From assembly GCA_030154225.1 (NCBI GenBank), contig JASKKI010000024.1, positions 1-33,124 of the forward strand: a stretch of DNA of 33,124 nucleotides. Direction: 5' to 3'. The first letter of the stretch is position 1, and each line of letters begins with the position of its first letter. A model generated the notes under the pieces. The model was not told the origin of the DNA. It saw only the letters and a program-made list of their open reading frames with translations, and did not search any database. Shown here in pieces: positions 15,581 through 19,328 of this stretch. Both the position numbers and the translations under genes were made by a program. Source of the DNA: Clostridia bacterium. GTDB lineage: Bacteria; Bacillota; Peptococcia; Peptococcales; BICA1-8.

Positions 15581-16126
15581 TCAATCCAATTTTATCCTTT
15601 CTAAGTTTTCTGTTAAGAATAGTTTGAGCCAGTCTAGAACAAGGGGATTATTTATCGGTACATCTTCCAATGTCTCTTTAATCTCTTCGGAATTAAAAGT
15701 AAATTCCTGACCGTTAATGTTATGCTTATATATTAATTTTAAACTAGGATTTACTGCTAAAATACTGATTATTGTACGCACCATATCACCCAGGGGAACT
15801 CGATCTATATGACTTATTTGGAAAGAAGCATATACTGTCGTTCCTTTACCTAATTGAGAAGATATAGTAAAATTTCCGTTACAAGCCTCTGCATTTGCTT
15901 TAAAAAGTGGTATACCTAAACCTACTTTACGGGTAGTGCGGCTGGTAAAAAAGGGGTCAATAACCTTTTTTATTTCTTCTTGAGACATCCCTTTACCGTT
16001 ATCCTTAATAATAATTTCTAAAATATCTTCTTTAATATTTTCATTGATAGATACTTCTACAATACTGGCCCCTGCCGCCAAAGAATTTTGTACTATATCT
16101 AAAACATGTAATGACAATTCCCTCAT
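15581..16126 (-). CDS. HATPase_c-domain protein (histidine kinase-like ATP-binding protein)
   Basis: A 181-residue protein made almost entirely of a GHKL ATPase domain: N-box LHVLDIVQNSLAAGAS, G1 box DNGKGM, F-box DPFFTSR, and G2-like GLGIPLFKANAEACNG. It has no histidine phosphoacceptor domain, sensor or membrane segment, so it is a stand-alone ATP-binding module. The ATG at 16126 is four bases after the PHP gene stop. It is last in the five-gene cluster. In related Clostridia, as I recall, a similar gene precedes the NuoE-like subunit of an electron-bifurcating hydrogenase; here DUF4321 follows instead. Confidence 0.85.
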   Translation of the reverse strand: MRELSLHVLDIVQNSLAAGASIVEVSINENIKEDILEIIIKDNGKGMSQEEIKKVIDPFFTSRTTRKVGLGIPLFKANAEACNGNFTISSQLGKGTTVYASFQISHIDRVPLGDMVRTIISILAVNPSLKLIYKHNINGQEFTFNSEEIKETLEDVPINNPLVLDWLKLFLTENLERIKLD

Positions 16127-16130
16127 TAAG

Positions 16131-16913
16131 TTAATCCCACTCTTCCTCAAAAATCTTATAAGGGTTATTTTCCTCTTTGTAGGTCAAATATCTCCCCTGT
16201 TCCCCTTTTAAGGCCATCTTTAATTCATTTACAGTAAATTTCTCTATGCTCCCCCACATAAAAGGTCCTGAAATTTGGTTTAACCAATGGGCGTCAGAAG
16301 ATAGCAATACGCCTAAACCTTTCTCCCTTATAAACTGGATCTGTTCCTTTTTACGTTTAAGGTGAGGGGTTAGCTCTACTCCCAATAGTCCTAATTCTTC
16401 AGGTATAAAACCTAAATTCATCCATAAACTGAAAGCTGGACGATCAATGTGAGCTGGAATAGCTAAGCCACCAATTCCATGCACATATTTTACAATATCA
16501 TCTAAAGAAATATTAGTTGCTGTTAATAGTAATCTATCATTTTCTGCAATAACATTACCTTGCCAATCTAATATTTCCTGATGTCCGAAAACTTCTTTAT
16601 TATTTTGAATTTCAGGAAGATAGTTATATACTAATTGTTGGCACATTAAAACCTGTTCCAATGTATCAAAAATACAGAGAATGTGTACATCTTCCCTGGA
16701 TTGTACCTCAATACCCGGCAAAATTTGCATATTCATTCTTTTTCCACATTCAAGGAAGGCTTCCTGATTTTCAGCACTATTATGATCAGCTATAACCAAA
16801 GCACCTAAACCTACCCTTCGGGCCTGTTCCATAATTTTAGGAGGAGTCATTTCTTGACCACCACAAGGAGATAATGCAGAATGGATATGAAGGTCCATAC
16901 CAATTAACTTCAT
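16131..16913 (-). CDS. PHP-domain metal-dependent phosphoesterase
   Basis: A 260-residue PHP-family protein predicted to hydrolyse a phosphoester at a multi-metal centre. The N-terminal motif DLHIHSALSPCGG (7-19), ADHNSAEN, the later EVQSREDVHI, IPAHIDRP and SSDAHWL supply the expected His/Asp/Glu ligands, so it looks active. The substrate is not evident. It starts five bases after the upstream DRTGG gene and ends four bases before the HATPase gene, so it is cotranscribed. Confidence 0.88.
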   Translation of the reverse strand: MKLIGMDLHIHSALSPCGGQEMTPPKIMEQARRVGLGALVIADHNSAENQEAFLECGKRMNMQILPGIEVQSREDVHILCIFDTLEQVLMCQQLVYNYLPEIQNNKEVFGHQEILDWQGNVIAENDRLLLTATNISLDDIVKYVHGIGGLAIPAHIDRPAFSLWMNLGFIPEELGLLGVELTPHLKRKKEQIQFIREKGLGVLLSSDAHWLNQISGPFMWGSIEKFTVNELKMALKGEQGRYLTYKEENNPYKIFEEEWD

Positions 16914-16918
16914 AAAAA

Positions 16919-17260
16919 TTATGACCCTCGTAAACCCATTTCATATAACTTGCCTGCTAGATTAAAAGCTCCTTCAGGTGATTTTAAGATAATGATTCCT
17001 TGAGCTTTTGCTTTCTCTATGGTTGTAGCATCAGGAAGTAAATTCTCAGGTAAAAGAATAGCCGAAAAATTTAATAAGGAAGCAACAGCCAAAATATTTT
17101 GATGGGTTTGAATTGTAATCCATAAGTCATCCTGTTGACCATGGGCCATAACATTACTCAATAGATCACAAATATAAACTCCTTTAACACTTTTACTTTC
17201 TAGATTTTCTCCAACGATTACTTCTAAGTTTAAGGACTTTACAATTTCATTTACATTCAT
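16919..17260 (-). CDS. DRTGG-domain protein (second in cluster)
   Basis: A 113-residue single-domain protein. The pattern GVYICDLLSNVMA, then WITIQTHQNILAVA and a final hydrophobic IIILKSPEGAF strand fits the DRTGG fold, and it aligns loosely along its length with the other cluster member at 18136-18495. DRTGG domains in CBS-type pyrophosphatases help bind adenine nucleotides, which suggests a ligand-sensing or docking role here. The ATG at 17260 with AGGTGGG upstream is chosen over one four codons earlier. Confidence 0.8.
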   Translation of the reverse strand: MNVNEIVKSLNLEVIVGENLESKSVKGVYICDLLSNVMAHGQQDDLWITIQTHQNILAVASLLNFSAILLPENLLPDATTIEKAKAQGIIILKSPEGAFNLAGKLYEMGLRGS

Positions 17261-17272
17261 AAAACATCCCAC

Positions 17273-18139
17273 CTAAAAAAATATTTCAATATGGAGTTCT
17301 GTCCCTTTTCCGAGGGTAGAATTTATTTTAAAGATATCACTGGATTTTTTAATATTTGGTAAACCCATTCCCGCCCCAAAGCCCATTTCTCTAATTTGAT
17401 CTGGAGCAGTAGAATAGCCAATTTGCATTGCTTTCTCGATATCTTCAATACCAGGACCCTGGTCTGTAATAAATAATAAAAGTTTTTCCGGGGAAATTTG
17501 AGCTTTTAATATACCTTCAACAGCATGGATAACTACATTCATTTCTGCTTCATAGGCGGCTATGGCTGCCCTGCGAACTATTTGGGCATTAATTCCAAGA
17601 TCTAATAATTTCTTTTTTAAAGAACTGGCTGCTAAACCTGCTTTTTCAAAGTCTCCACCTTTTATTTCAAACTCAAGGGTGTGGGTTTCATCTATTACCA
17701 TATTACTGATATGAGCTTCATTAATTTCATCTAACTTAAGGAAATTAGCCAATCTTTTTACAATATCGTTAGGTGTTATGATACCAACTACCAAGTTTGT
17801 ATCATTTACCACTGGTAGACGACTATACTGATATCTTCTAAATAAAGATAATGCTAAATTAATGGAATCATAAGGTTTTACTGTACAGACATTTAACGTC
17901 ATCCTATCCTTAACTTTTTCATCCAATTTCTGATCATCTAAAGCTTGAATTACATCGGCTATAGTGACAATACCTATCAACTTCTTTTTATCATCTATTA
18001 CAGGCATACCAGAAATATTTTTCAGCCGCATTATTTCTTTTGCTTCTCGCATGGTCATTTCCGGGGAAACAGTAATAACACACGTACTCATCATATCTTC
18101 AATAATTAATTTTGACTGGGAATCATGAAAATTATTCAA
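17273..18139 (-). CDS. CBS-pair and RsbW-like HATPase fusion protein
   Basis: A 288-residue fusion. Residues about 13-130 form two CBS domains (SGMPVIDDKKKLIGIVTIAD and SRLPVVNDTNLVVGIIT), which usually bind adenine nucleotides. Residues about 150-288 form a GHKL domain of the anti-sigma/serine-kinase type, with N-box EAEMNVVIHA (197-206), DQGPGIED (226-233) and GAGMGLPNIKK (255-265). The natural reading is a kinase or switch whose activity depends on nucleotide bound by the CBS pair; its target is not encoded nearby. The start is TTG at 18139, overlapping the upstream stop (TTGA), with GGAGG ten bases before it. Confidence 0.88.
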   Translation of the reverse strand: MNNFHDSQSKLIIEDMMSTCVITVSPEMTMREAKEIMRLKNISGMPVIDDKKKLIGIVTIADVIQALDDQKLDEKVKDRMTLNVCTVKPYDSINLALSLFRRYQYSRLPVVNDTNLVVGIITPNDIVKRLANFLKLDEINEAHISNMVIDETHTLEFEIKGGDFEKAGLAASSLKKKLLDLGINAQIVRRAAIAAYEAEMNVVIHAVEGILKAQISPEKLLLFITDQGPGIEDIEKAMQIGYSTAPDQIREMGFGAGMGLPNIKKSSDIFKINSTLGKGTELHIEIFF

Positions 18140-18495
18140 ATATCATCCGCCTCCACAAGGCCAAGCCCTTCTTTATAAAGGCAGCCACAGGAATGGTACA
18201 TTGATAATTCAGTTGCTAAAAGAGGTAGTCCGTGTTCCGATGCCATTTTTATTACTTCTTGGGGCGGAACTTTACCACGGACAAATACAATTGCTTTTAT
18301 ATCTAACATTTCAGATGTACGGACAACCTGAGGGTATATTAAGCCTGTTAAAAGTAAACTTTTCTCCTTAGCAAAGGCTAAAACATCACTCATCAAATCT
18401 GCACCACAGGCCGTTTCAACTTCTACATTTTCCCAGGGAAGCCCTTCCGTTAATACCTTTGCATGCAAAAGTTCTCGTACCTTTTTTAATTTCAT
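18136..18495 (-). CDS. DRTGG-domain protein (first in cluster)
   Basis: A 119-residue soluble protein with the DRTGG-like core TACGADLMSDVLAF, LLLTGLIYPQVVRTSEM and KAIVFVRGKVPP, related to the second DRTGG protein of the cluster. It adds a C-terminal tail with a CGC triplet (YHSCGCLY) that the paralogue lacks, which could be redox-active or bind metal. It is the first gene of the operon, with AAGGGAAG before the ATG. The role is inferred from neighbours only. Confidence 0.75.
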   Translation of the reverse strand: MKLKKVRELLHAKVLTEGLPWENVEVETACGADLMSDVLAFAKEKSLLLTGLIYPQVVRTSEMLDIKAIVFVRGKVPPQEVIKMASEHGLPLLATELSMYHSCGCLYKEGLGLVEADDI

Positions 18496-18555: not shown

Positions 18556-18584
18556 ATAATAAAACAAATGTGAACAATTGTGAA
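18556..18584 (-). promoter_or_regulatory. Promoter of the DRTGG/CBS-HATPase/PHP cluster
   Basis: TTCACA (18579-18584) and TATTAT (18556-18561), read on the minus strand, are 17 bp apart, about 60 bp before the first start codon. A second TTCACA copy lies ten bases downstream inside the spacer. Confidence 0.5.
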
Positions 18585-18595
18585 ATATATAGCAA
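18578..18595. promoter_or_regulatory. Candidate Rex operator
   Basis: TTGTGAAATATATAGCAA has a perfect left half of the Rex site (TTGTGAA) and a partial right half ending in CAA with the right 18-bp length. It covers the -35 box of the cluster promoter and lies about 95 bp beyond the 3' end of rex. The imperfect right arm keeps confidence moderate. Confidence 0.4.
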
Positions 18596-18666
18596 TTATA
18601 CACCATTCAAGAGGCAAGAAACAAGAAGCTAGAAACCGGAATAGGAAGAATTCTTTCTGACACTTT

Positions 18667-18692
18667 AAAAAGACGCCACTAGTGGCGTCTTA
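18667..18692 (-). terminator. Terminator of rex
   Basis: AAGACGCCAC and its near-exact complement form a 10-11 bp GC-rich palindromic stem beginning in the rex stop codon, followed on the minus strand by a T-run. It separates rex from the DRTGG cluster. Confidence 0.85.
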
Positions 18693-19328
18693 GTTTTTAT
18701 CTTTCTGTAATTCTAAATTAAATGTTAATATTTCAAGATTAACAGCCAGGTCAACATTTCTCAGCTCAACTTCTTCTGGAACCGATATCACTACAGGCGC
18801 AAAATTTAAAATAGCATTAATGCCACTTTCCACCATAGCATCAGCTACATCCTGGGCATAAGGAGCTGGCACAGCAATAATACCAATATCGACCTGCTTT
18901 TTTTTAACTATCTCATTTAATTTTGATACTGGATAGATAGGTATTCCATTCAGAGTTAGTCCTACTTTATTAATATCATTGTCAAACACCGCTATTACAT
19001 CAAACCCTCTTTCTCGGAAACCTTTATATTGGGTTAGAGCTGAACCTAAATTACCAGCTCCAACGATAATTACCTGCCAATTTTTATTTAAACCTAAAAT
19101 TCTTATTATATGTTGATTTAAATCTCTCACATTATATCCTACGCCACGGGTACCAAACTCACCAAAATAGGCTAAATCTTTTCTAACCTGAGCAGGGCTT
19201 CCCCCTACTCCTTCAGCAATTTCCCCTGAAGAAATATTAGTAATACCTTTTTTATCAAGCTGGGTTAAATAGCGGGAATAAACAGAAAGTCTAATAATAG
19301 TCGCTTCTGGAATTTTTAGGGTTTTCAA
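18690..19328 (-). CDS. rex: Rex, NADH/NAD+-sensing transcriptional repressor
   Basis: A 212-residue repressor that leaves DNA when NADH is high and thus controls fermentation, hydrogenase and respiration genes in anaerobes. The N-terminal winged helix (about 1-80) contains the conserved SGEIAEGVGGSPAQVRKDL and FGEFGTRGVGY segments. The Rossmann domain has the dinucleotide motif GAGNLGSAL (90-98) and AVFDNDINKVG. The C-terminal helix that swaps between subunits is present. The start is TTG at 19328 with AAGGAGGGG upstream. It has its own terminator and lies directly upstream of the redox cluster it may control. Confidence 0.96.
   Translation of the reverse strand: MKTLKIPEATIIRLSVYSRYLTQLDKKGITNISSGEIAEGVGGSPAQVRKDLAYFGEFGTRGVGYNVRDLNQHIIRILGLNKNWQVIIVGAGNLGSALTQYKGFRERGFDVIAVFDNDINKVGLTLNGIPIYPVSKLNEIVKKKQVDIGIIAVPAPYAQDVADAMVESGINAILNFAPVVISVPEEVELRNVDLAVNLEILTFNLELQKDKN

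What the first reader, a model, noticed from the sequence alone, without database searches (positions are those of the whole stretch)
15581..18495. Five-gene putative nucleotide/redox-sensing switch: DRTGG, CBS-HATPase, DRTGG, PHP, HATPase
The genes overlap or lie 4-12 bp apart. CBS and DRTGG domains, joined in one chain in regulatory CBS pyrophosphatases where they bind adenine nucleotides, are here split across neighbouring proteins, with the CBS pair fused to an RsbW-like kinase domain. Adding a PHP phosphoesterase and a second stand-alone GHKL protein gives the parts of a reversible phosphorylation switch gated by AMP/ADP/ATP or dinucleotides. No STAS anti-anti-sigma partner is visible, so the target is unknown. 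I know of no experimental description.
Basis: partly seen in the sequence, partly recalled or inferred. Interest (0 to 1): 0.8.

Follow-up and report, generated by a model that had tools for sequence, protein, structure and literature searches.

The report
Five-gene regulator of bifurcating redox enzymes
Five neighbouring genes form a widespread, co-inherited signalling cassette that elsewhere sits in one operon with an H2-sensing hydrogenase-like protein and with enzymes that move electrons between NADH and ferredoxin, so they are the best candidates for the unknown signalling partners of that H2 sensor.

Summary
In detail: five minus-strand genes (DRTGG, CBS-kinase, DRTGG, PHP, GHKL) lie end to end behind rex. 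They are not isolated. Relatives in at least 17 phyla carry the same genes, usually in one operon with the NADH/ferredoxin core of HydABC-like bifurcating (Bfu) enzymes, sometimes with Rnf. In many Bacillota the operon reads rex-DRTGG-kinase-group D 'sensory' [FeFe]-hydrogenase-DRTGG-PHP-NuoE-GHKL-2Fe2S-HydB-HydA. In this genome it is split over three contigs. Gene fusions pair DRTGG1 with the kinase, the hydrogenase with DRTGG2, and PHP with the second GHKL protein. All 18 of 46 class genomes with the kinase also carry DRTGG2, PHP and GHKL; 24 carry none, and 23 of those still have HydA, so the cassette is optional rather than an assembly factor. Kinases without CBS always adjoin the sensory hydrogenase (46/46); CBS-fused ones rarely do (4/83), although few independent changes underlie this. 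Best reading: an ATP-dependent switch with an H2/redox or adenine-nucleotide input that tunes bifurcating or Rnf enzymes. Association is strong; kinase activity, ligand and target are inferred. Published work noted the kinase beside the hydrogenase and calls its signalling partners unknown; I found no paper describing the whole cassette.

The parts
18136..18495 (-). DRTGG1: stand-alone DRTGG-fold protein, probable partner of the kinase; D33 and S36 invariant in 80 relatives
   Evidence: fused to the kinase in 8 relatives
17273..18139 (-). CBS pair plus SpoIIAB/RsbW-like GHKL kinase domain (residues ~154-286); N-box E197/N201, DxGxG 226-230 and ATP lid 253-259 conserved; CBS nucleotide motifs G56-x2-T59-x2-D62 and G119-x2-T122-x2-D125 conserved
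   Evidence: model pLDDT 88; fold match AcuB and SpoIIAB
16919..17272 (-). DRTGG2: second DRTGG protein, subfamily with invariant W51, H57 and N59; fused to the group D hydrogenase in two relatives
16131..16913 (-). PHP-family phosphoesterase; H9, H11, C17, D43, H44, E69, E74, H155, D207, H209 invariant and H77 98% conserved in 95 relatives
15581..16150 (-). HATP2: stand-alone GHKL ATPase with a conserved C-terminal alpha-beta extension (SHIDRxPLGD); probable start ATG at 16126
   Evidence: fused to PHP in 7 relatives
18690..19328 (-). Rex NADH/NAD+-sensing repressor, directly upstream; the module follows rex in many relatives
   Evidence: (NF003993, 3.5e-98)
18556..18602 (-). Promoter region of the module: a block of about 26 bp (GTGTATAATTGCTATATATTTCAcAA) conserved with G002 (one mismatch), overlapping a -35/-10-like match and a degenerate Rex-type palindrome
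18670..18691 (.). Terminator-like hairpin between rex and the module
   Evidence: 1 found, shuffles give 3.1 on average, so weak alone

Best explanation
The five genes are a cytoplasmic ATP-dependent signalling cassette that tunes NADH/ferredoxin-coupled enzymes (HydABC-type Bfu complexes or Rnf) to H2/redox state and adenine-nucleotide charge. Proposed working: the CBS pair (or, in relatives, the group D sensory [FeFe]-hydrogenase) is the input; it controls the SpoIIAB-like kinase, whose cognate protein is DRTGG1, occupying the place that STAS proteins hold beside SpoIIAB. DRTGG2 couples the sensory hydrogenase to the cassette. The PHP/GHKL pair forms a second ATP- and phosphate-handling unit that acts next to the diaphorase subunits NuoE/HydB, as a reversing or effector arm. 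Output is most likely a change in activity of the bifurcating complex. SHOWN by sequence: gene content, order, co-inheritance, operon context, fusions, intact ATP-binding and metal-binding residues. INFERRED: phosphotransfer, nucleotide ligand, direction of signal, final target.
For: Operon context: among 80 CBS-kinase loci from a genome-wide scan, neighbours include DRTGG2 in 63, PHP 61, NuoE 58, HATP2 55 and NuoF 55; across all held CBS loci with at least 7 kb downstream, 45 of 64 have a Bfu core or RnfC within 9 kb. Complete operons in Bacillota: rex-DRTGG1-kinase-FeHyd441-DRTGG2-PHP-NuoE-HATP2-Trx2Fe-HydB-HydA (L188-L195). Fusions: PHP-HATP2 x7, DRTGG1-kinase x8, FeHyd441-DRTGG2 x2 (Pfam-checked). 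Co-inheritance: 18/18 genomes with the kinase have DRTGG2, PHP and HATP2; 24 genomes have none. FeHyd441 carries group D hallmarks: Ala or Ser before the L1 Cys, all four H-cluster Cys, and a C-terminal Cx2Cx4Cx16C cluster (compare PMC6984386, PMC11803613). Perfect Rex sites TTGTTAAN4TTAACAA precede rex-module-hydrogenase operons in L188, L189, L192, L195 and L198; this genome's HydABC operon has a 1-mismatch site. ATP and metal residues are nearly invariant. The CBS part matches AMP/ADP/Ap4A-binding AcuB structures.
Against: No biochemical data. The phosphoacceptor is not identified: invariant Ser36 of DRTGG1 may be purely structural. In this genome the block is not next to HydABC, and in Acidobacteriota/Aminicenantes only DRTGG plus the CBS-kinase occur, without Bfu genes nearby. 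19 of 64 CBS loci show no Bfu/Rnf within 9 kb. CBS against hydrogenase adjacency rests on few independent changes (2-7). The Rex-like site before the module here is degenerate (3 mismatches).
Confidence: 0.6

Rival explanations
1. Transcriptional partner-switch: the kinase acts as an anti-sigma-like or co-regulator (through DRTGG1 or Rex) that sets expression of the hydrogenase/Bfu/Rnf genes rather than enzyme activity.
For: SpoIIAB-like fold (TM 0.83 to 1til); rex directly upstream with Rex sites before the whole operon in relatives; the group D hydrogenase literature favours regulation of gene expression (PMC8163306).
Against: No sigma factor or DNA-binding protein belongs to the conserved cassette apart from Rex, which already has its own NADH input; only two STAS genes in the genome, neither near; HATP2 and PHP are interleaved with diaphorase subunit genes, hinting at protein contact.
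Confidence: 0.22
2. Assembly or maturation factor: the GHKL ATPases and PHP protein help build or repair Bfu complexes or the sensory hydrogenase.
For: Interleaving with NuoE, Trx2Fe and NuoF genes; HATP2 resembles MutL/Hsp90-type GHKL ATPases as much as histidine kinases.
Against: 23 genomes of the class have a HydA homologue (E below 1e-60) but none of kinase, DRTGG2, PHP or HATP2, so the complex can be made without it; CBS and H2-sensor inputs suit regulation better.
Confidence: 0.1
3. Unrelated nucleotide-metabolism genes that happen to be clustered (housekeeping block near mreB/maf/folC).
For: In this window the flanks are housekeeping genes; PHP proteins can hydrolyse nucleotides or RNA.
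Against: Co-inheritance p below 3e-09, repeated fusions and the shared Bfu/Rnf context across at least 17 phyla.
Confidence: 0.04

Closest known systems
Group D (M2e) putative sensory [FeFe]-hydrogenase neighbourhood (TamHydS, Thermoanaerobacter mathranii)
   Same: A histidine kinase-like ATPase directly beside the M2e hydrogenase, upstream of a bifurcating HydABC; described in PMC8163306 and PMC3561251
   Different: Here the CBS is fused to the kinase, the hydrogenase is absent from the block, and the DRTGG/PHP/GHKL partners are recognised as one co-inherited cassette that also accompanies non-hydrogenase Bfu enzymes and Rnf
SpoIIAA-SpoIIAB / RsbV-RsbW partner switching
   Same: SpoIIAB-like GHKL kinase with a small alpha/beta protein encoded immediately upstream and overlapping
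   Different: DRTGG replaces STAS; no sigma factor, no PP2C phosphatase in the conserved block; kinase fused to CBS or DRTGG
CBS-DRTGG regulated family II pyrophosphatases
   Same: Uses CBS pair and DRTGG domains together
   Different: Domains lie in separate proteins, CBS joined to a kinase; no pyrophosphatase
AcuB (CBS energy-charge sensor, PMC13121692)
   Same: Best fold match for the CBS pair; binds AMP/ADP/ATP/Ap4A
   Different: AcuB has no kinase domain and controls a deacetylase
Bfu family electron-bifurcating enzymes (PMC9304861)
   Same: The genes that accompany the cassette in most relatives are Bfu subunits
   Different: That paper's text does not mention kinase, PHP, DRTGG or CBS neighbours

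Membership tests
SpoIIAB/RsbW partner-switching kinases | GHKL serine-kinase fold with catalytic Glu and Asn in the N-box | tested here: met
   E197 98%, N201 100% of 91 sequences; TM 0.83 to SpoIIAB
SpoIIAB/RsbW partner-switching kinases | Cognate STAS phosphoacceptor encoded next to it | tested here: not met
   Neighbour is DRTGG; only two STAS genes in the genome, both on other contigs
SpoIIAB/RsbW partner-switching kinases | Cognate sigma factor encoded next to it | tested here: not met
   None among the window neighbours; none noticed in the operons listed
Two-component histidine kinases | HisKA/DHp phosphoacceptor domain | tested here: not met
   Neither GHKL protein has HisKA in Pfam
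CBS-type adenine nucleotide sensors | Conserved G-h-x-T/S-x-x-D motif in both CBS domains | tested here: met
   G56/T59/D62 and G119/T122/D125 at 90-100%
CBS-type adenine nucleotide sensors | Measured nucleotide binding | not testable with these tools
   needs ITC or nanoDSF
Group D sensory [FeFe]-hydrogenase module | Group D hydrogenase encoded next to the kinase | tested here: not met
   Absent from the window; present on contig C65 beside a CBS-less paralogue
Bfu-associated cassette | Operon with NuoE/NuoF core | tested here: inconclusive
   Met in most relatives, not in this genome, where HydABC is on contig C108
PHP phosphoesterases | Intact His/Asp/Glu metal site | tested here: met
   H9, H11, H44, E69, H77, H155, D207, H209 at 98-100%; invariant C17 lies near the place of the usual Asp, by my recall of PHP motifs
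Rex regulon | Rex operator before the transcription unit | tested here: inconclusive
   Perfect sites in relatives; 3-mismatch conserved site here

The most novel reading that the evidence does not exclude
A previously undescribed, phylum-spanning signalling system dedicated to flavin-based electron bifurcation, in which one kinase core takes interchangeable inputs (H-cluster H2 sensor or CBS energy-charge sensor) and uses DRTGG proteins in place of STAS proteins to switch Bfu or Rnf enzymes on and off after translation.
Probability: 0.35. Interest if true: 0.85.

Novelty: new variant of a known kind. Interest (0 to 1): 0.66.

Why it matters
Group D sensory hydrogenases have been studied as purified enzymes since 2019, and the 2026 work states that finding their interaction partners is critical (PMC13104023). 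The cassette names candidate partners, and fusions predict which protein touches which. It also suggests that bifurcating enzymes and Rnf, central to fermentation, acetogenesis and H2 exchange in many anaerobes, share a dedicated control layer beyond Rex.

Tried and rejected
Split CBS-pyrophosphatase origin: rejected, because close kinases lack CBS and no pyrophosphatase is involved. Hydrogenase-only association: rejected, because in Chloroflexota, Planctomycetota and others the HydA-like subunit lacks H-cluster motifs and carries molybdopterin or pyridine-nucleotide oxidoreductase domains instead, and in several Bacillota the neighbour is Rnf. Redox-active Cys in DRTGG1: looked conserved in Bacillota but is absent in distant members. 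Statistically independent CBS/hydrogenase swap: Fisher 1e-30 on raw counts, but the tree gives only 2-7 independent changes, so it is reported as a pattern. A Rex consensus scan with 4 mismatches is uninformative. PDB search with the DRTGG profile gave mostly spurious designed beta-propellers. Fold search found no clear parallel for the HATP2 C-terminal extension. The relative orientation of the CBS and kinase domains is unresolved (pTM 0.51). One Pfam call failed on wrong coordinates, one paper search was rejected for a sign in a term, and the Ruminococcus albus HydS paper is not held.

Full report
WHAT IS THERE. The five reported genes are real and run on the minus strand from 18495 to 15581, nearly without gaps. 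Domain calls are right: DRTGG, CBS-CBS-GHKL, DRTGG, PHP, GHKL. Upstream lies rex, then an SPOR-like gene (my naming; no Pfam hit) and folC; downstream DUF4321, maf, radC and mreB. A weak terminator-like hairpin follows rex, and the only well-conserved stretch between rex and the block in a sister genome is about 26 bp holding a promoter-like match and a degenerate Rex-type palindrome, so the block probably has its own promoter.

IS IT MORE THAN CHANCE? Yes. The same five genes in the same order and place occur in five other genomes of the class at 46-70% identity. Across the 46 class genomes held, all 18 with the kinase family also carry DRTGG2, PHP and HATP2; 24 carry none; four carry a partial set. 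Presence varies together within families f1, f6, f7 and f11, so the pattern is not one deep split.

WHERE RELATIVES PUT IT. A scan of one genome per species gave at least 562 relatives; the best 80 were read. Next to the CBS-kinase stand DRTGG2, PHP, NuoE-like, HATP2, 2Fe-2S and NuoF-like genes in most loci, in at least 17 phyla. These are the subunits of HydABC-like bifurcating enzymes, the Bfu family (PMC9304861). Their third subunit in Chloroflexota, Planctomycetota and others lacks H-cluster motifs and holds molybdopterin or pyridine-nucleotide oxidoreductase domains, so the cassette is not specific to hydrogenases. In some Bacillota the cassette sits beside the Rnf operon.

THE MISSING PIECE. 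In most Bacillota examined the kinase lacks CBS and the next gene is a ~440 aa [FeFe]-hydrogenase-like protein with two N-terminal 4Fe-4S motifs, all four H-cluster cysteines, Ala or Ser in place of the proton-transfer Cys, and a C-terminal Cx2Cx4Cx16C cluster. These are the hallmarks of group D (M2e) putative sensory hydrogenases such as TamHydS (PMC6984386, PMC8163306, PMC11803613). In this genome that protein lies on contig C65 with its own DRTGG and CBS-less kinase (57% identical to the window's kinase domain), and HydABC on contig C108. The canonical operon is thus split in three here, and the window's kinase is the CBS-fused paralogue.

WHO TOUCHES WHOM. Fusions link DRTGG1 to the kinase (8 genomes, one clade), PHP to HATP2 (7, in Bacillota and Planctomycetota) and the group D hydrogenase to DRTGG2 (2 genomes, one family). 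46 of 46 CBS-less kinases adjoin the hydrogenase; 4 of 83 CBS-fused ones do. This looks like exchange of input modules, but the tree allows only 2-7 independent changes, so it remains a pattern.

MECHANISM. Shown: ATP-site residues of both GHKL proteins and the PHP metal site are nearly invariant; the CBS part folds like AcuB, an AMP/ADP/ATP/Ap4A sensor (PMC13121692), and the kinase part like SpoIIAB; HATP2 is a GHKL ATPase with a conserved C-terminal extension. Inferred: CBS nucleotide charge or the H2 sensor sets the kinase; DRTGG1 stands where a STAS protein would; DRTGG2 couples the hydrogenase; PHP/HATP2 form a second arm near NuoE/HydB; the output is activity of the bifurcating or Rnf enzyme. 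An assembly role is less likely because 23 genomes have a HydA homologue without the cassette. A transcriptional output remains possible; Rex sits upstream and perfect Rex sites precede the whole operon in five relatives.

KNOWN OR NEW. Earlier papers noted a kinase next to M2e hydrogenases upstream of bifurcating HydABC (PMC3561251, PMC8163306) and asked how the signal is passed on; in 2026 the partners were still to be identified (PMC13104023). Nine paper searches found no description of the DRTGG-kinase-DRTGG-PHP-GHKL cassette or of its CBS form; only open-licence papers were searchable. The domains are known; the system as a unit appears undescribed.

VERDICT. Observation confirmed; interpretation partly supported and extended: a conserved control cassette of bifurcating and Rnf redox enzymes. 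Confidence in the association is high (about 0.9); in the specific mechanism moderate (0.6 overall).

Noticed in passing
L073 3937-5847 (and L067, L068, L076): A ~637 aa fusion of an [FeFe]-hydrogenase domain with an MCP chemoreceptor signalling domain (Pfam-checked in L073 only) near the kinase/group D hydrogenase genes, with CheW adjacent in L067, L073 and L076: a candidate H2 chemoreceptor.
   Followed up: partly
window 18556-18602: About 26 bp nearly identical to a sister genome in an otherwise diverged intergenic region; promoter-like with a degenerate Rex palindrome.
   Followed up: partly
L154, L157, L159: Acidobacteriota/Aminicenantes carry only the DRTGG plus CBS-kinase pair; in L159 it is followed by an ORF resembling a Ser/Thr protein kinase.
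   Followed up: no
L038 (own genome, contig C30) 4105-9384: Two further [FeFe]-hydrogenase-like proteins (508 and 569 aa) with a second Rex-like gene (40% identical) alongside.
   Followed up: no
L201, L202, L213: HydB/HydA-like genes divergent from the cassette, with the HydA-like subunit split in two ORFs (311 and 354-358 aa) without H-cluster motifs.
   Followed up: no
own genome C108:1128-1145 (L037): Near-perfect Rex-type site TTGTGAATTTACTCACAA just before the HydABC operon.
   Followed up: yes
TamHydS neighbourhood in PMC8163306: The 'AraC family transcriptional regulator' reported beside TamHydS may be the DRTGG2 protein under a wrong database name; not tested.
   Followed up: no
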